From Chitinophagaceae bacterium (GTDB lineage Bacteria; Bacteroidota; Bacteroidia; Chitinophagales; Chitinophagaceae), in assembly GCA_947476485.1 (NCBI GenBank), contig CANJQU010000038.1:1-34447 (forward strand): a stretch of DNA of 34,447 nucleotides. Reading direction: 5' to 3'. A program made the position numbers and the translations under genes. The notes under the pieces were generated by a model. That model was not told the origin of the DNA. It searched no databases and saw nothing but the letters and a program-made list of their open reading frames with translations. This document shows, piece by piece, positions 5,131 to 30,087 of this stretch. Each line of letters begins with the position of its first letter. The stretch's first letter is position 1.

Positions 5131-5549
5131 GAGAGAATTATTGTTAGTGAGTTCGGGGTAAAGATACTGCGATAAACTATAAATTATATGGGAAAAACAC
5201 CCTTTTTTTCGTTAATGTGTCATTAATAAATTGTTAGTAGAATGAAAATGTTGTATGCTTCTTTCAAAATGCAACTTAAGGGTAATGGCGAAACATATTA
5301 CATAAAAACACTCATTTGAATCAATTTTGTTAATGATGGCTATAACGCACTATTTAAGCCCATGTATAAAATGCAGATGTTAAGCACCTAAGGAATTTTG
5401 TGTAATTAACTCGTTAATAGTGGTATAGTATGACTTAACTGAATAGAAAAGAAAGATATTTACTTTGGAAACTATTAGAAAACCCGTAACTACCCCCTTC
5501 ACTGATTGATTATTTAATTGAAACTTGCTATTACTGATGTTTCAGTTTC
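5131..5549. other. AT-rich intergenic region upstream of the sensor kinase
   Basis: About 420 bases without a gene. It is AT-rich and probably holds divergent promoters. TACTTTGG near 5461-5468 resembles a -7 box with one base missing, about 100 bases before the kinase ATG. On the minus strand TATCTTTA near 5160 could serve the small membrane peptide. No hairpin or repeat stands out. Confidence 0.3.
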
Positions 5550-5558
5550 AAGGAGGTG
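5550..5558 (+). promoter_or_regulatory. strong Shine-Dalgarno site deciding the kinase start
   Basis: AAGGAGGTG lies nine bases before the ATG at 5566. Such a complete Shine-Dalgarno sequence is uncommon in Bacteroidota and favours this ATG over a TTG 48 bases upstream in the same frame. Confidence 0.7.
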
Positions 5559-5565
5559 TTATATC

Positions 5566-7650: not shown

Positions 7651-7654
7651 CCAG

Positions 7655-8074
7655 ATGAACACAGCAGCTAGTAAATTTTCATTTAAGAAAGTGATGGCGA
7701 TCGAGGATACTAAGATCGATCAGTACATTATTCAGAGCACAATGAAGAAATGTAACTTTAGCGAAGAACTGATCCTGTACGGCTCGGCGGGTGATGCGCT
7801 GTCTCATTTCGATGTTGTAGACGAAACAATGGCTGACCTGCCTGACCTCATATTCCTTGACATCCATATGCCGAAGATGAATGGTTTTGAATTCCTGGCG
7901 GCGCTCAATGAAAAACATGACTGTCTGAAAAACAAGGTAAATATCGTTTTACTGACTTCCTCACTGGATCCGATAGACAAAAAGCTGTCGAGCGAGTTCC
8001 CAAATATCAAGCTATTCTTAAATAAACCGTTGAATACCGAGAAACTGGAAAAAATAAGCGCACTTATGTGTTAA
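7655..8074 (+). CDS. single-domain response regulator (receiver 1)
   Basis: A 139-residue CheY/Rcp1-type receiver with no output domain. Key residues are in place: acidic pair Glu17-Asp18 (MAIEDTK), phospho-acceptor Asp69 (LIFLDIHMP), Thr101-Ser102 (LLTSS) and Lys124 (LNKPL). It starts four bases after the kinase stop, so it is almost certainly translated from the same mRNA and phosphorylated by that kinase. With no DNA-binding domain it probably acts by protein contact or as a phosphate sink. It shares 87 of 139 aligned residues with the next gene and, like it, ends in cysteine (SALMC). Confidence 0.9.
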   Translation: MNTAASKFSFKKVMAIEDTKIDQYIIQSTMKKCNFSEELILYGSAGDALSHFDVVDETMADLPDLIFLDIHMPKMNGFEFLAALNEKHDCLKNKVNIVLLTSSLDPIDKKLSSEFPNIKLFLNKPLNTEKLEKISALMC

Positions 8075-8103
8075 ATGTTTTCGTAACTTAGTGTAACACA
8101 TTA

Positions 8104-8131
8104 TTGCTTCTCTCTTAGGGGCAAGAAGCAA
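8104..8131. other. intercistronic hairpin between the two receiver genes
   Basis: TTGCTTCT (8104-8111) pairs with AGAAGCAA (8124-8131) around a 12-base loop that contains TTAGGGG. It lies 12 bases before the ATG of the second receiver. There is no T-run, so it may be an mRNA-processing or attenuating structure rather than a terminator. Confidence 0.45.
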
Positions 8132-8142
8132 AATCAAGGCCT

Positions 8143-8562
8143 ATGGCACAAACAACAGGCAAGTTCTCCTTTAAAAAGGTAGTGTCGATCGAAGACTCAA
8201 AGCTCGATCAGTTCATTATTGAACATACGCTACAGCGGTGCAAGTTCAGCGAAGAGTTGCTTATGTTCAGTTCCGCTGGAGACGCACTCTCTCATTTTGC
8301 ACAGGTCGAAGAAAAAATGGCCGAGCTGCCAGACCTGATATTCCTTGACATACAGATGCCATTAATGAATGGTTTTGAGTTTCTGACGATGTTCAACGAA
8401 AAATATGCTGATTTCAAAGACAATGTTTCGGTTGTCCTGTTAACCTCCTCTCTGGACCCGGTAGATATGAGACGCTGCCACGAGTTCCCAAATATAAAAC
8501 TCTACCTAAACAAACCGCTTCGGGAAGAAATGCTGAATGAAGTAAGCGCGATGATGTGCTGA
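8143..8562 (+). CDS. single-domain response regulator (receiver 2)
   Basis: A 139-residue stand-alone receiver that aligns without gaps to the preceding one at about 63% identity, pointing to a tandem duplication. It keeps Glu17-Asp18 (SIEDSK), Asp69 (LIFLDIQMP), Thr101-Ser102 and Lys124 (LNKPL), so it should be phosphorylatable. Differences cluster at 81-94 and 109-113, beside the alpha4-beta5 surface where receivers usually contact partners, suggesting different partners. It also ends in cysteine (SAMMC). A hairpin in the 68-base gap may tune its expression relative to the first copy. The start ATG matches that of the paralogue. Confidence 0.9.
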   Translation: MAQTTGKFSFKKVVSIEDSKLDQFIIEHTLQRCKFSEELLMFSSAGDALSHFAQVEEKMAELPDLIFLDIQMPLMNGFEFLTMFNEKYADFKDNVSVVLLTSSLDPVDMRRCHEFPNIKLYLNKPLREEMLNEVSAMMC

Positions 8563-8842
8563 TCATTTTTTTATGCCCCGAAATGCCGCAATTCACTTTC
8601 TGGCGATGTAACGTTTTTCCAGGATTAAATACGACAGGTTTTAAAAGTCAATGTACACCAGTATCTGCTGGGTGCAGCACCTCATTTCCAATTTGCATTT
8701 TTGCTGATCCATGGATAACTGCGGATGAATTCGGTTATGGAGACCAATTCCGCATGGCCTGTTGCTAATTGCATGATCCTTTCTTCAATAATATTTCTCC
8801 TCCTTACTAACATTTTCACCTGAAATGACGCCTATATTTATA
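8563..8842. other. intergenic region upstream of the sigma factor gene
   Basis: About 280 bases without a supportable gene. A 70-codon frame here lacks family likeness and overlaps the receiver gene. No clear terminator follows the receiver. TATATTTA at 8833-8840 resembles a -7 box but has no matching -33 element. Confidence 0.3.
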
Positions 8843-8886: not shown

Positions 8887-9486
8887 TTGGTCAAAGATTT
8901 AGTTAATATAAATAGTGAATTTCTGATATCAGATAACAATAGTTTGTCGGGGCAAGATGAGCTTAAAGCACTGATAGGAGATTGTATTGCGCATTCCCGG
9001 AGCGCACAAAAGAAGCTGTATGACCTGTATGCGCCTGATGCTTACGGAACAATACGGCGCATGATATATAACGATGAGGCGAAGGCCAAAGAGGTGTTGA
9101 ACGAAGCTTTCTTTAAAATATTCAGGGATCTTGGCAAGTATGCATTCCAGGGCGCTTTTGAAGGCTGGATACGGAAGATAGTAGTACATACAGTTGCCGA
9201 CCACCTGAGGAAAAAAGTAAAAGCGGAGCCACACCGCGAGGTGCAGCCTGAAGATGCGTATATAGACAGCGAACCGCTTGAAAATATGTCGCATAAAGAG
9301 CTGTTAAAGATAATAGCCACATTGCCGGACGCACAGCGTGAGGTTTTCAACCTGTTTGTATTTGAAAACTACTCGCATAAGGAGATAGCAGAAATGCTGA
9401 ACATAAATCAAAATAACTGCCGATGGCACCTTAACGATGCCCGCAGAAGATTAAAAGAAAAAATTAATGCACTTATCAATAAATAG
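8887..9486 (+). CDS. ECF-type RNA polymerase sigma factor
   Basis: A 199-residue sigma-70 family ECF factor. Region 2 spans about residues 45-105 (LYAPDAYGTIRRMIYND, then EVLNEAFFKIFRDLGKY and GWIRKIVVHTVADHLRKK). Region 4 spans about 135-195 with the helix-turn-helix YSHKEIAEMLNINQNNCRWH, followed by LNDARRRLKEKI. The frame contains no ATG before region 2; the best start is the TTG at 8887, since an in-frame stop lies at 8821 and no ATG or GTG comes between. The stop is three bases before the next gene, an anti-sigma fusion, so the two are translationally coupled. It would direct polymerase to a specific promoter set, possibly including this operon. Confidence 0.9.
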   Translation: MVKDLVNINSEFLISDNNSLSGQDELKALIGDCIAHSRSAQKKLYDLYAPDAYGTIRRMIYNDEAKAKEVLNEAFFKIFRDLGKYAFQGAFEGWIRKIVVHTVADHLRKKVKAEPHREVQPEDAYIDSEPLENMSHKELLKIIATLPDAQREVFNLFVFENYSHKEIAEMLNINQNNCRWHLNDARRRLKEKINALINK

Positions 9487-9489
9487 CCT

Positions 9490-11043
9490 GTGAAAAACTA
9501 TTTGAAGCATATCGATGATTTTTTCAGGGAAAAATTGGGCAGGTACCGTGAGACGCCCCCTCCTGATGTTTGGGAGGCCCTGGATAAACAATTGGATGGA
9601 CTAATACCTTCTGCTACCGCGCCGCGGCATTCGCTCAGATGGCTGGGCCATGTGGCGATGGTAGCCATAGTGGCTGCGATCAGTGTTCCACTAGTGAAGA
9701 AAATAGCCGGCGCCAGGCATGAGGTTGTGAAAACTGAGGCAATAGCCATATCGCCGGAAGTTAAAGCCGAAACGAGTATGGAAGGAACCTTGCCAAACAC
9801 GATTGACCCCAGCAGTGCCAACAATGCAGAGAAAAAGGTCGTTTCGGGACCTGCGCAAAATGAGCGGCAGACAACAGCAGAAAGGGGCAGTGTTGCAAAC
9901 ACTGGCGTGACCTCCAATGGCCCAGGCACAGGCAGCAAACATAAGGAAGAACACGGGACCACCAGATCAGTTACACAAAGTGCGACCGCAAAAGCCACGA
10001 AGAGCCACTACAGGAAAGTGAAAAATCGCAGACACGGTGACGCGGTGAGCGATAAGAGTACCGTAGCCGGCAATGAAGGGAAAGCTAAAAGTAGTGAAAC
10101 CAGCGCAGCAACGAATAACTACAATAGCAGTGCAGGCAATGATGCGGTGGTAACAAATGAAGCGGAAAAGCATGCAGCGCAGCCATCCGAAAAGGCTCAG
10201 CCCGTCGCAAAAACAGGAAAGAAAGAAAGCATTAGAAAGGTTGCGAAGAAAGAACAGGCACCAGTTGTGTCTCCGTTCGGCAGGCTGGAAGCGGGCCTGA
10301 AGATAGGTTATGAGCGCGGGTTTAATAATGATGCTGCACAGAAATATGTAGTAGCGCCCTACCTGCAGTATAACCTTTCACCAAAGATTGCTTTAATGAC
10401 GCAGCCCGCTGTAAAGTATGCACAGTTGCGCACAAGAAATATTGGTCAGCGTGAAACTTATTATAAGTTAAATCATGATGGAAGGACTGTGCAGGATGGA
10501 GAACCGCAGCAGACGGGAACTATAGGCGGCACGGGTGTCTATACAACAAAATATACCTATAGCGAGACCCATGACCTGATAACAAAATCTTACACGGCTG
10601 GTGGTAATTATTTAGAGCTGGAACTGCCGTTGTTGCTGAAGTTTAAGATCGGTAAGAAGGCTTCAGTATACGGTGGTGCGAACGTTGTTTACCATAAGTT
10701 TGGAGTTACGGAACATACCGCGATACAACATGGAGTTGTACGTTCTGCGGACTTTACTACAGTAACTGTGGGGTTGCCAACTTCAATACCAACCGGTGGT
10801 GGGCTGGATTATGACGGTAATTCATTCAGCAACTATAAAGGGCCGGAATACGGATCGCCACGCGACAAGGTGAACATAGGCTACATGCTGGGGCTAAGTT
10901 ATGAATGCTGCAACAGGTGGCTATTGGATGCGTTGGTAGAACAAACGCCTTCAAACCGGAATATGGCGGATGGTTACAACTTAAACGCGCCGGTGTCTGC
11001 ACCTTATATCCGGCTGTCAGCGGGATATAAATTTGTAAAATAG
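9490..11043 (+). CDS. anti-sigma/outer-membrane beta-barrel fusion (dual membrane-spanning)
   Basis: A 517-residue protein with a GTG start three bases after the sigma gene. Residues 1-50 form a small acidic/basic cytosolic segment (DDFFREKLGRY, PPPDVWEAL) of the kind that binds ECF sigma factors in Bacteroidota. Residues 51-69 are one transmembrane helix (WLGHVAMVAIVAAISVPLV). Residues 75-260 are a Ser/Thr/Lys/Ala-rich disordered linker of about 185 residues, long enough to cross the periplasm. Residues 262-517 alternate in the manner of an outer-membrane barrel (LEAGLKIGYERG; VAPYLQYNLSPKI; LELELPLLLKFKIG; IRLSAGYKFVK). The layout matches the dual membrane-spanning anti-sigma (Dma) proteins reported in Bacteroides. 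Barrel state could relay envelope stress to the sigma factor; this is inference. Confidence 0.8.
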   Translation: MKNYLKHIDDFFREKLGRYRETPPPDVWEALDKQLDGLIPSATAPRHSLRWLGHVAMVAIVAAISVPLVKKIAGARHEVVKTEAIAISPEVKAETSMEGTLPNTIDPSSANNAEKKVVSGPAQNERQTTAERGSVANTGVTSNGPGTGSKHKEEHGTTRSVTQSATAKATKSHYRKVKNRRHGDAVSDKSTVAGNEGKAKSSETSAATNNYNSSAGNDAVVTNEAEKHAAQPSEKAQPVAKTGKKESIRKVAKKEQAPVVSPFGRLEAGLKIGYERGFNNDAAQKYVVAPYLQYNLSPKIALMTQPAVKYAQLRTRNIGQRETYYKLNHDGRTVQDGEPQQTGTIGGTGVYTTKYTYSETHDLITKSYTAGGNYLELELPLLLKFKIGKKASVYGGANVVYHKFGVTEHTAIQHGVVRSADFTTVTVGLPTSIPTGGGLDYDGNSFSNYKGPEYGSPRDKVNIGYMLGLSYECCNRWLLDALVEQTPSNRNMADGYNLNAPVSAPYIRLSAGYKFVK

Positions 11044-11077: not shown

Positions 11078-13753
11078 ATGACACTACCAGGCAGTGCCCT
11101 ATTTGCTTTATACAAGTCAAACACAACGGATCGTTGCTTGCGACGATCACACCCTTCTAAACACAGGCAGGGTGGTGCCGCACAGCTTGAAGTACGGAGT
11201 ATAAGTAAGCGCCAATATTCTTTTACAAGGTTGTGTATCCTTTTTTGCCAGCTCATTTTTGTGTCGCAATACGCACATGCACAGGTGATCAAAACGGTTG
11301 CCGGGATAGGTGTTGTGGGCTATTACGGAGATAACGGGCCTGCAACAGCCGCTGCGCTGGACTCACCGGGATGCGTGGTGACAGATGGCTGGGGCAATAT
11401 CTATATCAGCGATCAACTGAACAATTGTATAAGAAAGGTAAACTCATCGGGTATCATCACTACGATCGCCGGCACGGGTATTCCGGGGTATAATGGCGAT
11501 GGAATAGCTGCTACGGGCGCTCAACTGAACTCGAACTGGGGCATAGCGGTGGATCTTTCGGGGAATGTATATATAGCAGACCAGAACAACCACCGTATAC
11601 GGAAAGTCAGCCCCGCAGGTATCATCACAACTATTGCCGGAACAGGTGTTGCCGGGTTTTACGGTGACAATGGCGCGGCAACAAACGCACAGATAAGCCA
11701 CCCCATAGGTGTGGCCGTAGACGGATACGGCAATGTATACCTGGGAGATGCGGACAACTACCGTGTGCGAAAAATAGACACTTCAGGGATTATCAGCACC
11801 ATTGCAGGTATCGGTAGTGGCGGCTACAGCGGCGACGGCGGTCCTGCCACGGCAGCGCATATTGGCTATATGTGGGGACTGGCAACAGATGCCGCGGGTT
11901 ATGTGTACATCTGTGATGCATGGAACAACCGTATCCGCAGGGCAGACCCTGCACCGGGAGGGCTTATCATAACAGTAGCAGGAAACGGCTATGCCGGTGA
12001 AACGGGCGATGGTGGCGCTGCCACTGCGGCGAAGCTGAACCTGCCTACCGGTGTGTATGTAAGCAGCAGCGGAGAAATGTTGATAGCAGATTGTAAGAAC
12101 AACAAGATACGGAAAGTGAGCGCGGATGGTATTATCAGTACTGTTGCCGGAACGGGCATAGCAGGCTTTGCAGGAGATAACGGGCTTGCGACTGCTGCAC
12201 AGCTTTACCGGCCATTGTCGGTATGCGGTGATGGTAACAACAATATATATATCGCGGACCTGGACAATGTGAGGATCAGGGAGATCGGTATAGTAAGCCT
12301 ACTGTTCTTTGCAGGTGGTCAAAACCAGTCAATAATGGCGTGTCAGAACGAGCATCATTGTTCTATCGATTCGGCAATGGCGGTTATAGATTATACCCCT
12401 GGCAGCGTGGATGAATGGAGTGTAGCCGCTGCGCCGCTGCACGGTACGCTTGAAGTGGATTATGATACCACAACACCCGGCGGCACAGTAGTGCCCAGGG
12501 GACTTTCTTATACACCTGAGGCTGGTTACTCGGGCAATGATGTGTTTAAAGTGCGCGTAACCAATGGAACACTATCAGATACTACTGTAGTGAACGTAAC
12601 CGTAACGCCACTGATAATAACCGCCGGTGCAATCACCGGCCCATCGGTATTGTGCACAGGTTTCGCAGTTGCACTTACGGACAGTCTCGGAGGTGGCACA
12701 TGGGGATGCAGCAACAACAACATACACATCACGGCGACTGACGATATAGCCGTGATAACAGGCGTAACCGAAGGACTCGACACCATATTCTACATCGTAT
12801 CCAATGCATGCAATGCGGATACCGCAAAGAAAACAATAGCCGTACTTCCGGCGCCGGACGCAGGTGATATCACCGGGCCTGTTTCGGTATGTGTGGGTGA
12901 AACGATCATACTGGCAGATCTCGCACCGGGCGGCAACTGGAGCAGTGCAGATACCCTGACCACAGTATCGGCAGGTGTAGTAACCGGGCTGCATCCGGGA
13001 CCGGCGCTGATCATATACAGGGTGTCAAATGCAGCATGTGCTGCTACTGCGACCTATATACTGCACGTCGAAAGCGATCCGTTCGTGCCTGTTATTGAAG
13101 GGCAGGGAAGTATATGTACGGGCGCACAGGTGGCCCTTGACGGCGGATCGGGACGGGGTACCTGGAGCTCAGGCAATGAGACCATAGCAACGGTGAATAC
13201 ACAGACGGGCCTGGTGATGGGCACTGCCGCCGGTACTGCCACCATCAGTTATGTGGTTACCAATTCATGCGGCGCATCGGGCGGAGTGAAGATAATGACT
13301 GTCAATGCATTGCCAGAAATACCCGTGATCACGCGAAGGGGAAATATACTCTTTGCCCCGACTGGGTTTGCGGTTTATGAGTGGAGTGTTGATGGCGTGA
13401 CAATAGCAGGGGAGATCACAGACACATGTAGAGCAATATCGGGCGGGGTTTATGGCGTGGCCGTAGCCACGGCAGTGGGTTGCAGCCGCGGCTCACAACC
13501 ATACATATACCCGGGCTGCGGAGCCGATGACCTGGAAATATATCCGAACCCGGTGCAGCGCATCGCCAGCATACTATGGTGCGACAAAACAACGGTAAGG
13601 GTGGCCACAGCGGATGGGAAAGTGATATTGACCGCGGAGGATACTAACAGCATAGATATGAGTGGTCTGCCGGATGCCGTGTATATGTTCACAGTTTATG
13701 ACAGAAGCGGAAAGAAAGTAAAAACAAAAAGAATAACAAAAGCAGCGAAGTAA
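11078..13753 (+). CDS. T9SS-secreted NHL-propeller protein with Ig-like repeats
   Basis: An 891-residue secreted protein. A signal-type segment (RLCILFCQLIFVSQYAHAQ, about 51-69) follows an unusually long N-terminus, so the true start may lie downstream of this ATG. Residues 71-410 hold six NHL blades, each with a Gly-rich TIAGTGxxGYxGDxGxAT loop and a YIADxxNxRIRK strand, forming one six-blade propeller. About 411-510 is cadherin-like (GLSYTPEAGYSGNDVFKV). Three Ig-like units follow (about 512-750; GGTWGCSN, GGNWSSAD, RGTWSSGN), each with a Cys near both ends. Residues 820-891 are a type-A T9SS sorting domain (LEIYPNPVQ ... SGLPDAVYMFTV). It starts 34 bases after the anti-sigma fusion on the same strand, so co-transcription is likely. 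It is probably a surface adhesin or binding protein. Confidence 0.88.
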   Translation: MTLPGSALFALYKSNTTDRCLRRSHPSKHRQGGAAQLEVRSISKRQYSFTRLCILFCQLIFVSQYAHAQVIKTVAGIGVVGYYGDNGPATAAALDSPGCVVTDGWGNIYISDQLNNCIRKVNSSGIITTIAGTGIPGYNGDGIAATGAQLNSNWGIAVDLSGNVYIADQNNHRIRKVSPAGIITTIAGTGVAGFYGDNGAATNAQISHPIGVAVDGYGNVYLGDADNYRVRKIDTSGIISTIAGIGSGGYSGDGGPATAAHIGYMWGLATDAAGYVYICDAWNNRIRRADPAPGGLIITVAGNGYAGETGDGGAATAAKLNLPTGVYVSSSGEMLIADCKNNKIRKVSADGIISTVAGTGIAGFAGDNGLATAAQLYRPLSVCGDGNNNIYIADLDNVRIREIGIVSLLFFAGGQNQSIMACQNEHHCSIDSAMAVIDYTPGSVDEWSVAAAPLHGTLEVDYDTTTPGGTVVPRGLSYTPEAGYSGNDVFKVRVTNGTLSDTTVVNVTVTPLIITAGAITGPSVLCTGFAVALTDSLGGGTWGCSNNNIHITATDDIAVITGVTEGLDTIFYIVSNACNADTAKKTIAVLPAPDAGDITGPVSVCVGETIILADLAPGGNWSSADTLTTVSAGVVTGLHPGPALIIYRVSNAACAATATYILHVESDPFVPVIEGQGSICTGAQVALDGGSGRGTWSSGNETIATVNTQTGLVMGTAAGTATISYVVTNSCGASGGVKIMTVNALPEIPVITRRGNILFAPTGFAVYEWSVDGVTIAGEITDTCRAISGGVYGVAVATAVGCSRGSQPYIYPGCGADDLEIYPNPVQRIASILWCDKTTVRVATADGKVILTAEDTNSIDMSGLPDAVYMFTVYDRSGKKVKTKRITKAAK
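11284..12290 (+). repeat. six tandem NHL blades
   Basis: Six units of about 55 codons, each recognisable by a TVAG/TIAG-Gly-rich-GD loop and a YI(A/S)D strand, within the NHL cargo gene. They diverge at DNA level, so this is an old protein repeat rather than a recent DNA duplication. Confidence 0.85.
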
Positions 13754-13835: not shown

Positions 13836-13992
13836 TGCACGAAAGGCCATAGACACTAACCAGGAAATGAAAAATGAATAAAAAATAAAGCGCCGGTACT
13901 AACATTCAAGCTCTGCCATACGCCTTATAAGTAATGCTAAAACTAACCGTATGAAATGCCCTATTCAAGTGCCTATACTAAAATGTAATTTT

Positions 13993-16900
13993 ATGAAGAA
14001 GCGAGTTTTATTAACTATACTCATTGGCCTCACGAAGCAGCGTCATGTCTGCCTTGTCTCTGTTTTGACACTGTGCTTTGCCATCAGTGCAGTAGCTCAG
14101 CCTGCCATCAGCTCTGTAAGCCCGCTTAGCGGTATGCCCGGAAGCACCGTGACCATTACCGGCACGGGTTTTAATACCACACCGGCAAACGATGTGGTTT
14201 ATTTTGGCGCAACGCGGGCAGTTGTGACCAGCGCCAGCAGCACCTCATTGAGTGTGACCGTACCTAGCGGCGCTACTTATGCGCCGGTAACGGTGGAGAA
14301 TTTGGCGACATCGCTTACCGCCTTTTCACGCCTGTCATTCCTGCCTACTTACGATCATAGTGCCTATCCGGCGGGAGCAATTGGGTTTGATCGTAAGGTA
14401 AATTTTGCGGCAAGTGGCCCCAAACCTATACAAACGCTGATAGAAGACGTGGACGGTGACGGCAAGCCAGACATGGTAGTGCTCGACAGTTTGAATATTT
14501 CGGTTTATCGCAACACGGGTACTAGTGGCAGCATTAGTAGTGGTTCGTTTGCTCCCATGGTATCTTTCGCGCTGCCTACCCACCTGCATACTTATTCTTT
14601 TTATGATGGAGGCTATTTTAACAGCCGCATACTTATGGCAGCGGGAGATATAGATGGTGATGGCAAAAAGGATATTGTATATTCCACAGGCAACGACAGC
14701 ATTTGTGTGATCAGGAATACCTCAACCACTGGCAGCGTAAACTTCTCTGCTCCTGTCTTTTTCATGTCTGACAATACACTGCCAACCAACCAGGTAAATG
14801 GTGTAGCTATAGGTGACCTGGACGGTGACGGAAAAGCAGACATTGTAAGCACAAATCAAAACTACAGCATATCCGTTTTTCATAATACCGCGAGTCCGGG
14901 ATCAATCACTACCGGCTCGCTTTCCACTCCGATGATGATAACGATCCCTGGCAGCATTTACTATTTTTTGCCTGTCGGTGTGGCAATTGGCGATATTGAC
15001 GGTGATGGGAAGCCGGAATTGGCAGTAACGACCAACACTTCGGAAATTGATATTTTTCCTAACATCAGTACCCCCGGTACCATCAGTTTGGGAGCAGCGG
15101 TCACCATTGTATCAAACGGTGGTTATGTTCTCATCCCCTATCCCTACATGGGAGACACATTATTTAGCCGGTCTGCCGGAGTCTGCTTTAATGATATAGA
15201 TGGCGATGGCAAACTGGACCTTGTCGTTGCCAATAATTATGTCAACTCAATTTCTGTGCTTCGGAACACTGCCACCCCTGGAACGATCAATGCAGGTTCG
15301 TTTGCAGCTGGCGTAGCCTTTCCTTCAGCTTATGATGCCGCGGCCATAGCTGCAGGCGATTTTGACGGAGACGGAAAGACGGACCTGGCAGTAACTGGCG
15401 GTTATGCTTCTTCCATCTTCGGTTTTGTCTATGATATGTCCGTCTACATCTATAGAAATACGTCTTCGCCGGGCGTTATTAACGGAAGTTCTTTTGTTGT
15501 AACAACTACTCCTGTTGGAGGGAATGATATGCGCGGCATAGCAGTAGGCGACCTCGATGGCGATGGCAAACCAGACCTGGTTACATCAATCATGCTCGAC
15601 AATAATGTATCTGTGCTGAGGAATGCCCCTGTAGCGCCTGTCGTGATCACTTCGGTTAATCCTATTATTGCAGCACCGGGTACAACAGCGACAATAACCG
15701 GTAACAATTTCGGAACAACCGCAGCTGATAACATCGTTTACTTTGGAGCCACACGCGCCACCGTAGCCGCGGCAAGCGCCACATCGCTTAGTGTGACTGT
15801 GCCCCTGGGCGCCACCTATGAGCGGGTGTCGGCAATTAATGCTACAAATGGTCTTGGTGCATATTCAGACGGAACCTTTTTGCCAACTTTCAACGATCCA
15901 TTATGTGTACCCGGTACGGTTATCTTTGAATCTCCTGTTATGTTCCCTTCCTCCGACATCACTATGCCTCGCAGGGTGCGGATTTCAGATATAGACGGAG
16001 ACGGCAAAGCCGATGCGATTGTGAATATGGACTCTGGTTTTGTCTATTACAGAAATACCAGCGCGAGTGGTACAATAGACAGCAGTTCTTTTGCTGCACC
16101 GGTTCGTTTCGGCAGTGTGCCGTATTCTTTTGGTATTACCGTTGGCGACGTAGATGGGGATGGAAAACCGGATGTAGTAACTGGCACCTGGCTTGGCTTC
16201 GTGATCTACAGGAATACCTCTGCACCCGGAAGCGCCAGTTTTGCCCCGCCTGTATTTTTTCCGGATGGAGTTGGCGGAGGTCTTGTATCTTTCGCTATTG
16301 CCGATATGAATGGCGATGGAAAAGCGGATATTGTCGCAGGAAGTGGGAGTGTGGGCGCGTCAATATTTTGGAATACGGGCACTGCCGGTGTTATTGATTC
16401 AAGCTCTATGACGCCGGCAGCGGATTATACGCTATCTGATGGAGCCTGGAGCGAGAGTATTGCGGTCGGTGATATAGACGGAGATGGCAGGCCGGATATT
16501 GCTGTGACAAATACTGTGAACAAAGTATTTGTTTATCGTAATTCGCTCCAAGGGTTCGATTTTTACCCCACTGCTTTAACGTTGGGTACCCCGTCTGCTT
16601 ATATTAACGACATCGTAATCGCCGACGTAGACGGAGATGGCAAGCCGGATATAGCAGTTACGAATGGCCAGGACAGCAATATAATTGTATTGCGAAATAC
16701 GGCAACCATCGGCGTGATCGATACTTTTTCATTTGCAGCGCCGGTCTCTTTCAGAACGCCGCCCGAACCGCTTCACCTGGCTGTTGGCGATTTTAACGGG
16801 GACAATAAGCCCGATCTGCTGGTAAGTGGTGTGGCAGACTACACTAACCAGGTAGTCTCTGTATTTCTTAATACTGCAACTGCCGGTGTAATAAACAGCA

Positions 16901-19900
16901 GTTCGTTTGCCGCAAGGGTTGATTCGCCAGTGGTATACTCAGTATGGGCAACTGCAGGTGATATAGACAACGATGGCAAATCGGATATAGTCACCTGTGT
17001 CTACGCAAACCCTCCTGCTACTATACATGGCTCCATAGCCGTATTAAGGAATAACCCACATGTGCCAGCCATTACAGGCAATGCACCTATATGTGTGGGT
17101 GCGATGATACAACTACATAATGCACTCGGCGGAGGGAACTGGAGCAGTAGTGAGTTTACAGTTAGTGTTGGCTCTGCCGGGCTGATAACCGGTGTCTCCG
17201 CGGGCACAGCTTCAATTACTTACACCTATTTGCCGGGGTTCATTGCCACTACCATTGTAACTGTCAATCCGGGTGGCTTACCGCATATTACATCAGTGAG
17301 CCCGATGAAGGGCAATGTGGCGTCATCGGTTACTATTACCGGAACAAACTTCAGTACGACCACTTCAGAAGACGTAACTTATTTTGGCGCAACAAAGGCA
17401 AATGTGGTTTCCGCAAGCAGTACAGTATTGAATGTAACTGTGCCCAGCGGTGCGACATATATGCCGGTAACGGTTACCAATCCAACATGTGGCCTCACGG
17501 GTTATGCCGGCCAATCGTTTTTGCAGACATACGATAACAGCCCTTACCTATCCGGTACGGTGCACTTAGATACCAAAGTAGACTTAGTCACGGGTCCTTG
17601 GGCTTATGTGCTGGCACTCAGCGATCTTGATGGAGATGGGAAGGCGGATATGGTAGCTACAAGTGCTACAAGCAATACAGTATGGGTGTACCTCAATACA
17701 TCTTCCAGTGGTTCTATAACAGGCAGCTCATTTGCCGCGCCTGTTGTCATTCCAGTTGGTAACACACCTACTGGCATAACTACCGCAGACATAGACGGAG
17801 ATGGTAAGCCTGACCTGGCCGTAGTAACTGCAGGAGATGCTACAGTTTCTGTGCTCCGCAACACGTCTTCACCAGGTTCCGTGTCATTTGATGCCCCTGT
17901 GGTATCCGCCACTGGTGGTGGTGGCGCAATGGTAGCTGTCAGTGACATTGATGGTGATGGCATACCAGATATGGCAGTAGCCAATTCCGCTGATCATACG
18001 GTTTCCATTTTTCACGGTGTCTCTGCTCCGGGTGTCATTTCCTTTAGGCCTCAGGTGGTTTTAAGTGCAGGGAGTACTCCCCATGATGTATTAATAAGGG
18101 ATATAGATGGTGACGGTAAGCCTGACCTTACAGTATCAAACATAGACGGCGCTTCGATTTTCATGTGGAGAAATTTGTCTTCGCCTGGTTCGATAACATC
18201 CGGGTCCTTTGCTTCCCCATTGACTTTTGTCACCGGAGGTTCTCCTACTGGATTATCAATAGGGGATATAGATGGAGATGGCAAGCCGGATATGGTTATT
18301 GCTGATGAAAATGATAATGACGTTTCTGTGTTTCGCAATACATCTTCCACAGGGGTTATTTCTTTTGCCACGCGTGTAACCTTTGCCACCGGCAGCGTGC
18401 CTATGGGCACAATTATGAGCGACATAGACGGAGATGGCAAGCCCGACCTTTCGGTCGCTAACAACGATGGCGGTACGGTTTCTGTTTTAAGAAACATTGC
18501 ATCCATAGGCAGTATTTCGTATGCTGCGGGGGAAACCTACTCATCAGGTGGCGGCCCGTATAGCGTAGTTTCTGGTGATATTGACGGAGACGGAAAACCG
18601 GATCTTGCAATTCTCAATAACGGAAGCAGCACAATATCAGTTTTGCGGAACAACCCGGTACCCGTATCCGGCATACTGGGCACTCCAACTGTATGTGTGG
18701 GCAGCACTACAACATTGAGTTATTATTCAGGTGGTGGCGAGTGGGCATCATCGCCCACAGGCGTTGCTGTGGTGGGTAGTTCTACGGGTGTTGTTACCGG
18801 TATATCGGCGGGTACCGCTACAATTACTTACTATGGGCCTTTTGGTTTTTCGACAATGCAGCAAGTAACAGTGAATGCGTCACCTGCCTCTATATCAGGC
18901 GCCTCGAGCATTGATGTTGGAACCTCTGTTACCCTCTCAGATGCTACTGTGGGGGGAAGCTGGAGCAGCAACCCAATTTCCATTGCAACAATAGACCCGA
19001 CCGGTACCGTCACCGGCATAGCTGCAGGCAGCGCAATTATCAGCTACACATTGCCTGAAGGTTGCGTAGCAACGCAAACACTCAATGTTAATCCTGCAGT
19101 ACTGCTGCCGGGCAGTATCCGGAGTGGTATTGTTTCCACATACGCACCATTTTTAGCGGAATATGGAAGCTGGGGGTTGGTAGTTGATTCCAGTAATAAT
19201 ATTTATGTGGCAGATGCGGTAACTTCTACCGTAAAAAAAATAAGCCGGTCCGGTATTGTAACTGTTGTTGCAGGTAATGGAACGGCCGGTTACAGTGGGG
19301 ACGGCGGGCCGGCAATTGCAGCGCAATTGTCTAATCCTGCAGGCATGGCCCTGGACGCATCAGGTAACTTGTACATTGCAGACTTTATCAGCAGTGTTGT
19401 CAGGAAAGTAAATACATCCGGAATTATTACAACGGTGGCCGGCAGCACGTGGGGCTATAGCTCCGGTGATGGCGGGCCGGCAACAGCAGCTACGCTTGCG
19501 GGACCTTACTATATAGCCGTGGATAGCAAAGGCAATCTTTATATCACCGATGACTATAACGCTAATGTGCGCAAAGTGGATACTTCAGGTATTATTACCA
19601 CTATTGCCGGCTTCCCGGGTGCACTTGGGGGGCCTATAACGGGCTTTAGCGGCGATGGCGGACCGGCCACAAACGCATTGTTGAACTTTCCGGGGCAAAT
19701 AACCGTTGACGCGCACCAAAATGTATATGTCAACGACATAAATAATAACAGGGTCAGGAAAATTGATAGCGCCGGCATAATCACAACGATCGCGGGAAAT
19801 GGCACCTACGGAGATAGTGGCGATTGGGGGCCTGCCGACCTGGCATCAATAACCAGGTGTAATGGATTAAAAACGGATATCGCCGGAAATATTTATTTGA

Positions 19901-22900
19901 CCGGAGGTGTCACAGGCGAGCACATTCGCAAAATAAACCCTGCCGGCATTATTACTACGATAGCAGGAACCACCCCGGGATATAGTGGTGATGGTGGTCC
20001 AGCCAGCCTGGGTAGTTTCAATATAACGGGACCGTTCGACTTTGACCGGTATGGCAATATGTTTCTTGCGGATTTAGGCAATCATGTGATACGCGAGATA
20101 AAGTATCATGCAGATGTATTTGCAGACAGTTTTTCTGTTTTCATCGATAATCATTGCGGAGCGCTGAATTTCTCTACTGAAACTAACCCGACTGCTGCAA
20201 CAACATTGACTACTGATTTCGGGGATGGTACAAGTACTACTACGCCACTTAGTCCCGGTGATCCTGGTACGATGTATGCCAGTGTACCCCACGTTTATTC
20301 GGCGCCGGGCACATATTCTGTAAAAGAAGTATTGTGGGATGGAGCGACTGCCGTCGATTCAATTCTGTTCTCTCACCAATACCTCCTGTGCAATAACTTC
20401 GCCGTGCAGTTCTACTACGATAACAATGGTAACTGCGCGAAGGATGGCGATGAAACATGGAGTTTTCCACCAGTCACTGTTGAAGTTGATTCAAACGGAA
20501 TAGCTGTGGACACGCAGACAGCGACGAGCGGCATCTATTATACTGCTTTTGGTAACCCGGGAGATATCTATTCCTTCAAAGTGATATCCGCGCCAGCTGG
20601 CCTTGTTCCAACATGTTCGGGAAGTGGAATAGTATACGATACGCTGCAGTCGATAATCTATCATGTAACCAACAACTATATTGGATTTACCTGTTCCAGT
20701 ACTCCTGGTTTTGATCTTACTGAGCATATGAGCTCAATTGCGGGCCGCCATACTGCTACCGGTACTGTTGTAGTGAACAATAATTATTGCACGCCGCAGG
20801 CAGGGGTCGTTACGCTGAATATAAATCCAAAGTTTTCTTTTAGCGCTTCTGTTCCATCGCCCAGCAGTGTCTCCGGTAATGTCGTAACATGGAACATGAC
20901 TGGTTTATCATCGATGTTAGCGCCACATACTATTAACTATACTCTTGAAAGAACAGGTACATGGCTTACTCCCGGCGACACTATCCTGTCGGTCGTTAGA
21001 ATAACGCCCGTGACCGGAGATGCCGACACAACAAACAATACTATTGCACGTATAGATACTGTAAAATCTTCCTTTGACCCTAATGAAATATCAGTAATAC
21101 CAGGCGGTTATATATTGCCCGGCACCTATCTGCAGTACACGATCAACTTTGAGAATACAGGTAATGATACTGCGCATAATATTGCCGTGATGGATACATT
21201 GCCGGACAACCTGGATGTGAACACGCTACGTATAGATGCAGCAACTGCTGTAATGAATACCGCTATCTACAAAGCAGACGGCCACAACATTATTAAATTC
21301 GATTTCCCGCACATTAATCTTTTAGACAGCACCCATCATAACGAATGCACCGGCATGGTGATATTCCATATAAAGACAAAAAGCGGGCTCGGTGATGGCG
21401 CAACAATGTTCAATCAGGCAGGTATCTTCTTTGATGACAATCCTGTAGTGATTACGAATACCGTGGAGAACATCATCAGCCTCATACACGGCCCCGATCA
21501 CGTATGCGTAGGTGCTCACTTCAATTTTTCTGAAGTTCCTGCCGATGGTGTATGGGTGGCCAGCAACGTCACCGCATCTATCTCGCGCGATACAGTGACG
21601 GGCGTTACGGCAGGCATTGATACGTTCACTTATACCACCACCACAAAGTATGGGTCTGCGTCTGTTACAAAAATTGTAACAGTGAACGCTTCTCCGGCTC
21701 CTATCACCGGGCCATCATCTGGTTGCGAAGGCACCTCAATTGTTCTGTCTGACGCGACACCGGGGGGCACCTGGAGTGTCGACAATGTTGCAGTGGCTAC
21801 CATAGGTTCTACAGGCATAGTAACCGGAATATCTGCGGGTACTGTTAACATTACATGCGGCATATCTACAGGCTGTATTGCAACAAAGGTGGTAACTTTC
21901 AATCCGCTCCCTATGCCGGTTTCCGGAACGGCAACTGCGTGCGCAGGCAGCAGCATCACACTATCTGATGCCACAATTGGGGGTATATGGAGCAGCAGTA
22001 ATCCTGCCGTTGGTACAGTTGGCAGCGAGGGCACGGTAGCCGGCCTGTCAGCAGGCACTACAAGAATCTCTTATACCCTGGCAACCGGCTGTTCTTCAAA
22101 TGTTGTTGTAACTATAAGCCCAATGCCATCCGTTATAAGCGGCATTACTGCGGTTTGTACGGGATCATCTTCTCCTCTTTCGGACGCTGTAGGCGGCGGC
22201 ACGTGGGGCAGCAGTAATACAGCCGTTGCGACCATTGGCGCCACCACAGGAGTGGTAACCGGTGTAACGGCAGGTACCACCAATATCTCTTATAAAATGT
22301 CACCCGGTTGCTTTGTAAGTACGGTTGTAACGGTCAATTCTACACCGGCTGCAATAACCGCAAATCATCCTGTGTGTGCTGGGAGTTTGTTAGCACTCAC
22401 TGACGCCACCACAGGCGGCACATGGAGCAGCAGTAACCCAGGAGTGGCGTCTGTGGGTAGCGGCACGCCTATGGTCAGCGGCAACTCTGGCGGTACTGCA
22501 AGTATTTCTTATATACTACCGTCGGGATGCTTTACCACTACGGTGGTGACTATTAATCCATTGCCGGGTTCCATTGGCGGCATATTTAGTGCATGTACCG
22601 GCGCTACATTCGTTTTGACCGATGCGAGCCCCGGAGGCATCTGGAGCAGTTCATCTTCGAAAGTATCCGTTGGAACAGGCAGCATTACCGGCGTAACGGC
22701 AGGTACTGCGCTAATTACCTATACACTGCCAACAGGCTGTAAGACGACTGTACTAGTAACAGTTAACGGATCTCCTGCGCCAATAACAGGTGTTGCATCG
22801 GTATGTGCCGGTCTTGCTACCGCCCTCACTGATGCTACAGCAGGCGGTGCATGGAGCAGCAGTAATGTTGCGGCCGGGACGGTTAGTGTGACAGGTGTGG

Positions 22901-25900
22901 TAACAGGGATAGCAACGGGCAGCACCATAATAAGCTATATACTCACTAACGGGTGTACGGCCACCGCCACCTTTACTGTGAATGCTATGCCTACACCGAT
23001 CGGGGGCACTCCTTATATGTGCAATGGTTCCGCCACATTGCTTACTGATGCGCTGACAGGCGGCACCTGGAGCAGCAGCAGTCCTGTAGTCGCCAGTGTC
23101 AGTTCAGGTGGTTTAGTATCGGGAGCCGATGTTGGTACAGCAGTTATTACTTATTCTGCGGCAGGTTGTATAGCCACGCGGGAGGTTACTGTGAATACTA
23201 CGCCCACATCTATATCCGGTGTTACTATTTTATGTGCGGGCGACAATACTGCGCTTAGCAATGGTGTGGCTGGTGGCACATGGAGCTCTGCGGCACCTGC
23301 AATTGCTACTATTGGTTCGACAGGTGTGGTAACGGCGGTTTCTGCCGGCACATCAGTTATTACGTATGCGCTAAGTACGGGTTGCAAAGCGACGACCAGG
23401 GTTACTGTTAATCCAACACCTACACCGATCGGGGGTACTCCTTATATGTGCAATGGTTCCTCCACATTGCTTACTGATGCGCTGATAGGCGGCACCTGGA
23501 GCAGCAGCAGTCCTGTAGTCGCCAGTGTCAGTTCAGGTGGTTTAGTATCGGGAGCCGATGTTGGTACAGCAGTTATCACTTATTCTGCGGCAGGTTGTAT
23601 AGCCACGCGGGAGGTTACTGTGAATACAACGCCCACACCTATATCCGGTGTTACTATTTTATGTGCGGGCGACAATACTGCCCTTAGCGATGCTATGGCT
23701 GGCGGTACATGGAGCTCTGCGGCACCTGCAATTGCTACTATTGGTTCGACAGGTGTGGTAACGGCGGTTTCTGCCGGCACAGCAGTTATTACGTATGCGC
23801 TAGGTACGGGTTGCAAAGCGACGACCAGGGTTACTGTAAATCCAACACCTGCGTCGATCTCCGGTATTACGTATCTGTGTAATGGTTCCACCACATTGCT
23901 TACTGATGCGCTGGCGGGTGGCACCTGGAGCAGCAGTGATGTTATTATTGCCGCGATCAGTTCAGGTGGCTTAGTCTCTGGATCTGGTGTTGGTACGGCT
24001 ACGATTACTTATTCTTCTGCCACAGGTTGTATAGCCACACAAGCGGTTACCGTGAATTCAACGCCCACACCTATTTCCGGTGTTACTATTTTATGTGCTG
24101 GCGACAATGCAGTGCTTAGCGATACTATAGCTGGTGGTACATGGAGCTCTGCGGCATCTGCAATTGCTACTATTGGTGCGACAGGAGTGGTAACGGCGGT
24201 TTCCGCCGGCACAGCAGTTATTACGTATGCGCTAAGTACGGGTTGCAACGCGACGACCAGGGTTACGGTAAATCCAACTCCTGCGCCGATCTCAGGTATT
24301 GCGTATCTGTGTAATGGTTCCACCACATTGCTTACTGATGCGCTGGCAGGCGGCACCTGGAGCAGTAGTGATGTTATTGCCGCGATCAGTTCAGGTGGCT
24401 TAGTGTCTGGATCTGGTGTTGGTACAGCTACGATTACTTATTCTTCTGCCGCAGGTTGTATAGCCACGCAGGTGGTTACCGTTAATGAGGTACCAGCAGC
24501 CATATCGGGGCTTACTTTATTATGTGCCGGCGATAGTGCCACGCTTAGCGATACGGTTGCCGGTGGTGCATGGAGCTCTGCAACGCCAGCGATTGCCACA
24601 ATAAGTGCAGCAGGGGTTTTAACGGCGGTATCTTCCGGAACAGCAGTCATTACGTATACGTTAGGCAGTGGTTGCAGCGCTGTAACCATAGTTACGGTAA
24701 ACCTTACACCGCCTGCAATAGCTGGTACGACTATTGAATGCATCGGCATGACAACAGCGCTGAGTGATGTTGAGCCCGGCGGAGCCTGGAGCTCGTCATC
24801 TTCAGCCATAGCTTCTGTCAGCACTTCGGGCATAGTTACAGGCGTGTCTGCCGGAACGGTCAATATATCTTATGCATTTCCCTCGGGCTGTTATACCTTT
24901 GTTATCAATACTGTAAATCCGTTGCCATCGGCTATAATGGGCGCATCGGGTGTTTGTGTCGGTTCAGCAACACCACTTACCGTTTCGCCTGCCGGTGGCA
25001 ACTGGATGAGCAGCAGCCCATCGATAGCGACAGTAAACGCCACCGGTATTGTTTCTGGTGTTTCGGGTGGTACTGCGATGATAACCTATACGCTTCCTTC
25101 AGGTTGTTATACTACGCTTATTGTAACCGTGAGCACATCTCCTGGTCTTATATCGGGAGTTACCGCCCTTTGCGCCGGCAGTACAACCGATCTTAGTGAT
25201 GTAACTCCCGGAGGGACATGGAGCAGCAGTACGCCGGGTATTGCAACTGTCGCCACCATTGGCGCTTCCACCGGCATTGTGATCGGCATTTCAGCGGGAG
25301 TGGATACCATCAGTTATATTGTTTCTGCGGGTTGTGTAGCTACGGTTTTAGTTACAGTTTATGCGACACCAGTAGTTACAATGGTTGCTTCATCCGCTGC
25401 ATGCGGCGGCGCATATGATCTTGTTGCGGCCGGTGCGGTATCTTATTACTGGTCTCCTGGTGTCGGAATTGCCTGTAACACCTGCGCTTCAAATACGGTT
25501 CGTCCGATGACCGCAACTGTATACACGGTTACCGGGACTGGTGCTAACGGGTGCATGACAACAGAAAGCATAACTGTGAATCCGAACAAGGTTGCAGGAC
25601 ATATAGCAGCCGGTGGTTTGGCTACAGATGCAATGAAAGTGTGGCTCATACAGTTTAATCCTGCCGACAGCTCACTGATCACCCAGGACTCCATGTTCAC
25701 ATGTATGGATGGCGGCATGCCATATTACGAGTTCGATTCGGTGGTTCCCGGCAATTACCTGGTAAGGGCAAAGCTGATTAGCAGTGTTCCTGGTGTAACA
25801 GGTTATGCACCCACGTATGGTGCGTTCAGTGCTCATTGGAATGCAGCTAACGCAATTGTTCACACCAGCGCTACAGATACGCAGCACATCAATATGGTCT

Positions 25901-29800: not shown

Positions 29801-30087
29801 AGGTACCAACAACCCGGGCATACCTGTCTAAGAAGCTTACGATTATGCCAAACCCTGCGAACGGGCCGTTCCAGTGCAAGTTTGCAGCGCAGCAGGACGC
29901 AGACCTGACACTTGAGCTTACAGATGTATCAGGACGCCTCGTTTACACCCAGGCCGTACACGCAGTTGCCGGTATGAACACAGTTACCGTAAATGCAACT
30001 GCCGGTGCCGGTGAAGGAATGTACTTCGTGAAACTGGTTAACGGTTCTGTGAAATACGATGTGACTAAAATAACTATCGTACGCTAA
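26866..30087 (+). CDS. T9SS-secreted choice-of-anchor-A/PKD protein
   Basis: A 1,073-residue exported protein. The signal peptide is MRRTLPLSCFLILLFSATRL ending in SAQ. Residues 28 to about 345 match the choice-of-anchor A domain (LGFNVFVQGDANL; GPVAMGGDLTIGGNY; EVEGTVFAPYANI), a beta-helix-like adhesin domain found with varied surface anchors. Two PKD domains follow (YRWDFGDGTHG; ITWDFGDGTSG, about 350-505). The middle, about 510-990, has no recognised domain except a probable jelly-roll part late on (YHSYKFTAKGGGKVQIKLI). Residues from about 995 to 1073 are a type-A T9SS tail (LTIMPNPANGPF ... EGMYFVKLVNG). It has its own promoter and terminator, so it is monocistronic. It is probably a surface or matrix protein. 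Confidence 0.85.
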   Translation: MRRTLPLSCFLILLFSATRLSAQSSPTAPALGFNVFVQGDANLIDNLTQGPVAMGGDLTIGGNYDVSTTSDGAFTVAGIPTTLVIGGKINFGSGILNVGHHGYVKTGDCSGATVWYSDMTGASSPMRITGCSDYNGTPRINMQMSAYSIGVSPTSNPVCQSTGIDFVSAFLQMKTSATNMSALSDNSNLFDGDNNALASHTGLPSIVKITLHSGTNVLNVTGADLNAISSFRFNHAPDAAHLFVVNVNAPGTFTWNVFTSAGIDMTDCPYVLYNFYNTASLTIGGSAEVEGTVFAPYANIYKNTNHAAINGQIIGQSYRHAAGDDHYFVFGSGFTGCGGDISVNASYDVNIGNQCLADNVFIFEGSATGVGPFTYRWDFGDGTHGYTRDFVKHYTTTGTFHVKFVVTGAGGAADSVTHTIIVSPTPVSGFTVNDSIHALTGNSFAFSALSGAGCTITWDFGDGTSGTGTSPVKTYSDLGSYLVKETVTSPAGCVMYSYMKVYVICDSVSCGCDGGLESVSLGDLVSRRAINNIKNSVNTRPDYNTMPAYHKAANNAAARGTGAGSSIQRFAPAGLVNTTAKISTPTDITSLTSAVDAFSVDYVSNNAAKAAVLAITTRNGAYNHTKSICDRFRGAVLSDAESITIQGMKFIQFKLKQQNGSIEYCIAFSAGKSAGSTHFNLQSKWLISEYSADDSVFNFQVWAASPLNTQILASDILTNLSHVMPLQQLDANLPAPTTYIAAGKRDKGFLNLSINSAINSTNCKIIFIEKKNEFSGTDTLMIPFTLIGGQVNNFALPIYDGYEYEGHLYLNDTLVDDVYMADGNWSWDYDPAYSSIEFKPNNNIDRVYTDGEYPLYRNITVTGTSNDYLSIYKFVTSGEDKVDLSDYHSYKFTAKGGGKVQIKLIKNGIVNFKDQYYTTLTLDTGMKSYQVSFNDFVSDNLGADFNASDITAVVYTFQYGGKSTSVNFFADEQSFSTTEVPTTRAYLSKKLTIMPNPANGPFQCKFAAQQDADLTLELTDVSGRLVYTQAVHAVAGMNTVTVNATAGAGEGMYFVKLVNGSVKYDVTKITIVR

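What the first reader, a model, noticed from the sequence alone, without database searches (positions are those of the whole stretch)
8887..11043. ECF sigma factor coupled to a protein that seems to span both membranes
Seen: the sigma gene is followed three bases later by one polypeptide with a cytosolic anti-sigma-like N-terminus, a single transmembrane helix (51-69), a disordered linker of about 185 residues and a C-terminal region of amphipathic strands ending in a barrel-like LSAGYKF. Known: dual membrane-spanning anti-sigma (Dma) proteins were recently reported in Bacteroides and linked to vesiculation. Inference: this is a one-protein route for outer-membrane state to reach the cytosol, and this member is a distant version outside Bacteroides.
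Basis: partly seen in the sequence, partly recalled or inferred. Interest (0 to 1): 0.7.

Follow-up and report, generated by a model that had tools for sequence, protein, structure and literature searches.

The report
Two-membrane anti-sigma controlling surface proteins
One bacterial protein appears to reach from inside the cell to the outer surface and to restrain a gene switch, and sequence evidence suggests that this switch turns on very large proteins displayed on the cell surface.

Summary
An ECF sigma gene (8887-9486) is followed three bases later by a 517-aa protein with a conserved N-terminal module, one TM helix, a disordered linker and a C-terminal outer-membrane beta-barrel (AlphaFold2 pLDDT 93.5). 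This architecture is already published as Dma/Reo; the window pair belongs to a clade from Chitinophagaceae and relatives (sigma tree 100/99).

New is a probable output. A promoter-like motif, CTAAC-N17-CG[T/C]C, precedes the sigma gene in 25 of 27 clade regions, one as TTAAC. In two genomes of this genus spacing 17 is 2.8-5.4 times commoner than 16 or 18. Of 87 such sites 13 lie just before genes with a type IX secretion (T9SS) sorting domain; 0 of 47 spacing-shifted sites do. In the window it precedes the sigma gene and a 4185-aa T9SS-type protein. T9SS cargo genes flank clade pairs more often than other pairs. Many single sites must be chance.

Best reading: a Dma-type pair whose sigma drives T9SS surface cargo. 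The signal, sigma binding and double-membrane insertion are untested; vesiculation was not testable.

The parts
8807..8832 (+). Predicted autoregulatory ECF promoter CTAAC-N17-CGCC, 54 bp before the sigma start
   Evidence: Motif found by a search of all bipartite words in upstream regions (CTAAC-N17-CGTC in 22 of 27, shuffle maximum 4-5; 25 of 27 with [CT]TAAC and CG[TC]C); window sites
8887..9486 (+). ECF sigma factor gene, 199 aa
   Evidence: Pfam; NCBIfam TIGR02937 83.5 bits over cut-off 42.9
9490..11043 (+). Dma-type anti-sigma factor gene, 517 aa
9490..9639 (+). Residues 1-50: N-terminal cytosolic module, presumed sigma-binding, consensus IDDLFRExLGxYxExPPPxVWxxLxxxL
   Evidence: D9, W28 and L35 invariant in 19 and 27 rows; AlphaFold helices 8-15 and 25-37 at low confidence
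9640..9696 (+). Residues 51-69: single transmembrane helix
   Evidence: hydropathy; AlphaFold helix 48-73; one such helix in 26 of 27 clade members
9697..10260 (+). Residues 70-257: disordered periplasmic tether
   Evidence: pLDDT below 50; tether length 165-670 residues in 27 members
10273..11040 (+). Residues 262-517: outer-membrane beta-barrel, read as 8 transmembrane strands with long extracellular hairpins
   Evidence: AlphaFold mean pLDDT 93.5; the 50 Foldseek PDB rows shown are outer-membrane barrel entries
11017..11034 (+). Residues 510-515 SAGYKF: C-terminal beta-signal-like motif
   Evidence: A loose pattern xxG[YFW]x[FLIVM] (first position limited) occurs in the last 26 residues of 27 of 28 clade members; beta-signal consensus recalled
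11078..13753 (+). NHL/Big_2 repeat protein with T9SS sorting domain, 891 aa, 34 bp after the anti-sigma gene, probably the same operon
   Evidence: PF18962 27.9 bits over cut-off 27 (marginal), TEN_NHL 1.1e-36
13899..13924 (+). Second copy of the promoter motif, CTAAC-N17-CGCC, 26 bp before the giant ORF
13951..26508 (+). Giant FG-GAP/NHL/Big_2 surface protein with T9SS sorting domain, 4185 aa; predicted regulon member
   Evidence: PF18962 2.2e-13; promoter site

Best explanation
This is a Dma-type sigma/anti-sigma pair of Chitinophagaceae and relatives. The N-terminal part of the anti-sigma holds the ECF sigma at the inner membrane; the same chain crosses the inner membrane once, spans the periplasm with a disordered tether of about 190 residues and ends in a barrel placed in the outer membrane by BAM, with long extracellular hairpins. 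A change at the barrel, or failure to seat it, releases the sigma (mechanically or by proteolysis of the tether). The sigma then transcribes its own operon from CTAAC-N17-CG[TC]C and switches on genes for large T9SS-delivered surface proteins, here the operon's NHL protein and the 4185-aa protein. Shown by computation: gene order, predicted fold, conservation, motif, its spacing and its placement before T9SS cargo genes. Inferred: sigma binding, insertion in both membranes, that this sigma reads the motif, the signal and the release step.
For: Architecture. Conservation and pairing. Sigma tree: the 28 clade sigmas lie on one side of a branch, support 100/99. Motif: CTAAC-N17-CGTC in 22 of 27 clade regions against a shuffle maximum of 4-5; spacing 17 gives 44 and 43 sites in G000 and G097, spacing 16 gives 16 and 12, spacing 18 gives 11 and 8. 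T9SS sorting-domain frame starting near the site: 5 of 44 (G000) and 8 of 43 (G097) at spacing 17; 0 of 28 at spacing 16 and 0 of 19 at spacing 18. Around the pairs: motif before 13 of 36 sorting-domain genes and 3 of 83 other genes, p 8e-6. Neighbourhood: sorting domain in the gene after the pair 14 of 28 against 3 of 66, in the gene before the sigma 14 of 24 against 5 of 68.
Against: No wet test. No Pfam or NCBIfam family hits the window anti-sigma convincingly. Within the window alone, matches with up to one mismatch are no more than chance (6 found, 5.29 expected, 41 of 100 shuffles as high). The tool's reversed-pattern control gives as many hits as the true motif (56 against 44 in G000, 43 against 43 in G097), so many single sites are chance; 29 of the 44 G000 sites lie inside ORFs or have no ORF start within 300 bases. 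One of 36 sorting-domain genes has the motif at spacing 16. Each of the two genomes has two same-clade pairs, so targets cannot be given to one sigma with certainty. The CGYC wobble was chosen after seeing the window site. Cargo genes at 26866 and 30245 have no such site. Rows in the neighbour tests are related by descent.
Confidence: 0.7

Rival explanations
1. General outer-membrane stress sensor, as proposed for EcfO-Reo: envelope damage or failed barrel assembly frees the sigma; T9SS cargo genes are only one of several surface outputs and are not themselves sensed.
For: The anti-sigma of like architecture in Phocaeicola vulgatus is proposed to sense outer-membrane stress, and its sigma gene is induced by an antibacterial toxin (PMC9308784 and PMC13114119 passages); the conserved beta-signal-like end suggests dependence on BAM.
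Against: Seven of the 13 non-sigma intergenic sites in the own genome precede T9SS cargo; by reading, no stress gene stood out among the rest. NigD relatives were not sought.
Confidence: 0.4
2. T9SS cargo-display sensor: the barrel binds or counts T9SS surface proteins (or a ligand they bring) and closes a feedback loop on their own transcription.
For: The cargo proteins beside clade pairs fall into nine sequence clusters; two family members (L122, L145) carry a PorP/SprF barrel and L145 is followed by a CHU_C cargo gene; PorP-like barrels bind type B cargo (PMC9143113 abstract).
Against: No binding evidence. The PorP variant is rare: no clear case in 395 phylum genomes (only 3 candidates scored per genome). 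The cargo beside the window's clade carries Por_Secre_tail, not CHU_C.
Confidence: 0.25
3. The two halves work apart: the tether is cut after export so that the barrel and the anti-sigma are separate proteins, and the fusion only couples their synthesis.
For: Tether length varies from 165 to 670 residues and its sequence is poorly conserved, so no set length seems needed.
Against: The fusion is kept in the 27 clade members held with both ends; L075, whose sigma lies inside the clade, ends before the barrel. Published Dma2 and Reo are described as one chain spanning the envelope.
Confidence: 0.15
4. The T9SS link is hitchhiking: sorting-domain genes are so common in these genomes that they land beside the pair by chance.
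For: At least 150 sorting-domain genes in each of the two genomes. With the second gene downstream and the third upstream counted too, the contrast narrows to 24 of 29 against 21 of 70.
Against: Immediate neighbours of other pairs, many from the same order, are seldom cargo genes (3 of 66 and 5 of 68), and 0 of 47 spacing-shifted sites precede such genes.
Confidence: 0.07

Closest known systems
Dma1/Dma2 with Das1/Das2 of Bacteroides thetaiotaomicron (PMC13088901; founding PNAS 2024 paper not held)
   Same: ECF sigma gene beside an anti-sigma with N-terminal binding domain, one TM helix, long disordered tether and C-terminal barrel; Bacteroidota
   Different: Another lineage; predicted output is T9SS cargo, whereas published effects are on nigD1, PULs and vesicles; its own promoter motif; no sequence comparison with Bt Dma was made
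EcfO-Reo of Bacteroides fragilis and Phocaeicola vulgatus (PMC9308784, PMC13114119, passages)
   Same: Anti-sigma described as spanning cytoplasm to outer surface with a C-terminal barrel; sigma gene beside it
   Different: Published regulon includes NigD proteins and an LPS glycosyltransferase; induced by toxins and in the gut; here the predicted output is T9SS cargo
SigP/PorXY of Porphyromonas gingivalis (PMC7712824 abstract) and the SM6 ECF promoter of Flavobacterium psychrophilum (PMC9723704 passages)
   Same: ECF sigma control of T9SS-related genes; SM6 has a CGT box at -10 and includes a sigma/anti-sigma pair
   Different: Those promoters serve T9SS component genes; SigP is activated by PorXY; whether the SM6 pair is Dma-type was not tested
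FecI/FecR/FecA cell-surface signalling (recalled)
   Same: Outer-membrane state relayed to an ECF sigma
   Different: Three proteins with a TonB-dependent receptor; here one chain, no FecR or receptor domain found

Membership tests
Dma anti-sigma family | Encoded directly beside an ECF sigma gene | tested here: met
   3-bp gap in the window; sigma ORF directly upstream in 24 of 26 candidate loci, one of these (L056) with a partner of other make-up
Dma anti-sigma family | The sigma belongs to class ECF21 | not testable with these tools
   No ECF class models in the libraries; of the 25 NCBIfam rows shown only the general TIGR02937 passes its cut-off
Dma anti-sigma family | N-terminal anti-sigma domain | tested here: inconclusive
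   Strong conserved motif but no named domain and low-confidence helices; no co-folding with the sigma
Dma anti-sigma family | Single transmembrane helix | tested here: met
Dma anti-sigma family | Long disordered tether | tested here: met
   pLDDT below 50 over residues 70-257
Dma anti-sigma family | C-terminal outer-membrane beta-barrel | tested here: met
   Prediction only; Foldseek rows shown are outer-membrane barrel entries with low to moderate TM-scores, OmpA 0.54 by target length; OMP_b-brl_2 in 10 of 27 clade members, not in the window protein
Dma anti-sigma family | Sequence homology to Bt Dma1-3 | not tested
   No Bacteroides thetaiotaomicron sequence was fetched
Dma anti-sigma family | Loss frees the sigma and raises vesiculation | not testable with these tools
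   Needs mutants
FecR-type cell-surface signalling | FecR domain and an adjacent TonB-dependent receptor gene | tested here: not met
   No Pfam family in the anti-sigma; the scanned neighbours are two response regulators, a kinase and T9SS cargo
T9SS cargo (genes at 11078 and 13951) | C-terminal Por_Secre_tail domain over cut-off | tested here: met
   27.9 bits against 27 (marginal) and 50.7 bits

The most novel reading that the evidence does not exclude
In Bacteroidota with a type IX secretion system, Dma-type anti-sigmas are cargo-display gauges: a barrel in the outer membrane reads the state of T9SS surface proteins and, through one continuous chain, sets transcription of those same proteins. 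PorP/SprF-barrel anti-sigmas, one of them beside a CHU_C cargo gene, would be the most explicit form.
Probability: 0.25. Interest if true: 0.85.

Novelty: new variant of a known kind. Interest (0 to 1): 0.6.

Why it matters
What envelope-spanning anti-sigmas sense and control is an open question; the papers I saw treat gut Bacteroides and Phocaeicola. Here a defined promoter and a short list of target genes make the regulon testable in cultured relatives, and they tie this sensor class to type IX secretion. Searches that combined these subjects (open-licence library only, judged from listings and passages of some of the papers) showed no paper joining Dma-type anti-sigmas with T9SS cargo; PMC9723704 comes nearest, with an unclassified sigma/anti-sigma pair.

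Tried and rejected
Alignment-based scans with the barrel domain failed for lack of conserved stretches; the sigma alignment was used instead.

Four PF13568-bearing ORFs of 606-659 aa (one cut at 631) in the own genome looked like further Dma proteins but, by reading, begin with signal-peptide-like stretches and resemble OmpA-type proteins: rejected. L054 (probably a false hit) and L056 (repeated W-motif modules, no barrel) were left out before the 99-pair counts.

A second motif, CCAAC-N18-GTCT, belongs to another clade of pairs (35 of 68 non-clade upstream regions). Genome counts of 40 and 31 against reversed controls of 27 and 36 showed no clear excess; not pursued.

The PorP-barrel variant was sought in 395 phylum genomes; 55 matched, nearly all through PorP-type frames of about 300-400 aa and none a clear fusion. 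Two longer frames (G300:C45, 562 aa, matching residues 6-300; G150:C37, 493 aa) were not followed up.

VIA-align was unavailable.

Full report
WHAT IS THERE. The window is one whole contig (C38) of a 4.58-Mb genome; named relatives of the clade are Chitinophagaceae, Taibaiella, Flavipsychrobacter, Edaphocola and unnamed Bacteroidetes MAGs. The window anti-sigma hits no Pfam family at E up to 1 and no PDB sequence. Relatives hit OMP_b-brl_2 (PF13568) or OMP_b-brl (PF13505): PF13568 in 10 and PF13505 in 3 of 27 clade members, 27 and 16 of 56 other pairs (named loci over 300 aa, 56 of the 70 others), at E up to 0.01.

FOLD. AlphaFold2 on residues 261-517 with 32 sequences: mean pLDDT 93.5, pTM 0.79, mostly strand. 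From the strands of the full-length model I read eight transmembrane strands (266-277, 284-295, 300-317, the end of 348-386, 391-404, 458-473, 477-485, 506-516) plus extracellular hairpins; the count comes from DSSP, not from coordinates, and ten is possible. An even number puts both barrel ends in the periplasm, as a tether needs. Foldseek against the PDB: 75 matches at E up to 0.001; the 50 rows shown are outer-membrane barrel entries (FapF, OmpA, Ail, OmpX and others). TM-scores are low to moderate (OmpA 0.54 by target, 0.38 by query length) and rmsd values large, so this supports the class, not a close relative. The full-length model (13 sequences, mean pLDDT 62.8) shows helices 8-15 and 25-37, TM helix 48-73, pLDDT below 50 at 1-7, 35-51 and 70-257, and the barrel.

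RELATIVES. 21 of 117 same-family genomes, the own one included, matched the protein. The own genome has two further pairs with a long tether, in C20 (999 aa) and C19 (790 aa). Of its 12 sigma matches I looked at 11; apart from these three pairs none showed, by reading, a long-tether partner, C62 being cut off; C173 was not fetched. Of the 80, 77 had a next gene to read. Clade members keep D9, W28 and L35 (27 rows), one TM helix (26 of 27), a beta-signal-like end by a loose pattern (27 of 28) and a tether of 165-670 residues, median 288 (27 rows). Four of the other sigma genes have partners of 160-182 aa with no barrel, and L075 ends before the barrel.

TREE. In a 98-row sigma tree the 28 clade sigmas lie on one side of a branch (100/99). 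Two ungrouped rows fall inside, L075 and L048, and both have the clade's motif.

PROMOTER. I listed bipartite words in about 260 bases upstream of the sigma start. CTAAC-N17-CGTC occurs in 22 of 27 clade regions (window included); the commonest word of that shape reached 4-5 in five sets of Markov shuffles. With [CT]TAAC and CG[TC]C it is 25 of 27, 27-66 bases before the approximate start. The window's own site reads CGCC, so I used CGYC from then on, for controls too.

REGULON. CTAAC-N17-CGYC occurs 44 times in G000 and 43 in the same-genus genome G097. One base less gives 16 and 12; one base more 11 and 8. The tool's reversed-pattern control gives 56 and 43, as many as the true pattern; the spacing controls keep the boxes and are the better comparison, but many single sites must be chance. 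In the window alone, matches with up to one mismatch are no more than chance (6 against 5.29 expected); the weight there lies in their position. Against the 150 PF18962 (Por_Secre_tail) matches scored in each genome (of 226 and 230 candidates), a sorting-domain frame starts within -200 to +300 bases of 5 of 44 and 8 of 43 sites; for the N16 and N18 sites together 0 of 27 in G000 and 0 of 20 in G097. By my arithmetic about 0.4 per genome is expected. Reading the ORFs in G000: 15 of 44 sites are intergenic with an ORF start within 300 bases, 10 lie inside an ORF of the same strand with a start further on, and 19 have no ORF start within 300. Of the 15, two precede the sigma genes; seven of the other 13 precede sorting-domain ORFs, and one (L191) is cut by the contig end and looks similar. 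Targets include the window's 4185-aa ORF and the divergent 305-aa cargo gene beside the C20 pair. In the 29 clade loci the motif precedes 20 of 23 sigma genes, 13 of 36 sorting-domain genes and 3 of 83 others (p 8e-6); two of those three look like partial or cut cargo genes (L071, L033). Thirteen of the 29 loci hold such a cargo gene. Spacings 15, 16, 18 and 19 give 0, 1, 0 and 0 of 36.

NEIGHBOURS. The gene after the pair has a sorting domain in 14 of 28 clade pairs and 3 of 66 others; the gene before the sigma in 14 of 24 and 5 of 68 (Fisher p about 9e-7 each, rows related by descent). With the second gene downstream and the third upstream counted too it is 24 of 29 against 21 of 70; ten of those 21 loci are Flavobacterium or Flavobacteriaceae records with a cargo gene two genes away. 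The test used a local profile seeded from the window's four cargo proteins; Pfam confirmed all four clade neighbours sent to it. Those cargo proteins fall into nine clusters once the tail is removed, by loose linkage. In the window four consecutive genes after the pair (11078, 13951, 26866, 30245) carry Por_Secre_tail over cut-off; the last two lack the motif.

LITERATURE. PMC13088901 (abstract, introduction, discussion and passages) gives the same four parts for Dma, beside ECF21 sigma genes, found solely among Bacteroidota. PMC9308784 and PMC13114119 (passages) describe an anti-sigma, named Reo in the second, that spans the envelope with a barrel (first paper) and probably senses outer-membrane stress. 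So the architecture is known. PMC9723704 (passages) reports an ECF motif with a CGT -10 box before T9SS component genes and one sigma/anti-sigma pair in Flavobacterium psychrophilum. Abstracts only: PMC9143113, PMC7712824. PMC12045153 cites the Dma paper in its references. The founding PNAS paper is not held.

HOW IT LIKELY WORKS. Shown by sequence and prediction: pairing, fold, motif, spacing, probable targets. Inferred: the N-terminal module holds the sigma; the chain really sits in both membranes; this sigma reads the motif; the barrel reports outer-membrane or surface state; release is mechanical or proteolytic. The stress reading and the cargo-display reading are not separated by these data.

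VERDICT. A new variant of a known kind, with a specific, testable output.

Noticed in passing
L145:5563-7284 and L122:5533-7068: Sigma-coupled anti-sigma proteins whose C-terminal barrel is PorP/SprF (3.6e-27 and 1.2e-17); the gene after L145 has a CHU_C T9SS domain. No clear further case in 395 phylum genomes.
   Followed up: partly
L042:2372-4387 (-) and L078:5554-7620: The N-terminal W-motif module looks duplicated before the TM helix in L042; L078 has its TM helix late, at 119-137, which suggests the same. L056 has several such modules and no barrel.
   Followed up: no
upstream of sigma genes in L085-L112 and relatives: A different clade of pairs carries CCAAC-N18-GTCT (35 of 68 non-clade regions); its targets are unknown.
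   Followed up: partly
window 26866-30087 and 30245-31927: Two more T9SS-type proteins in a row: an ice-binding-like/PKD protein and an arylsulfotransferase-like protein, without the CTAAC motif.
   Followed up: partly
window 5518-8562: A PAS-domain histidine kinase followed by two tandem, similar single-domain response regulators, before the sigma gene on the same strand.
   Followed up: no
G000 and G097 motif sites: Sites split into CGCC (window pair, its G097 counterpart and several cargo genes) and CGTC (C20 pair and others), possibly separate targets of the two paralogous sigmas.
   Followed up: no
L075:5551-6660: An anti-sigma whose sigma lies inside the clade ends at 369 aa in the tether with no barrel; frameshift, assembly error or real truncation.
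   Followed up: no
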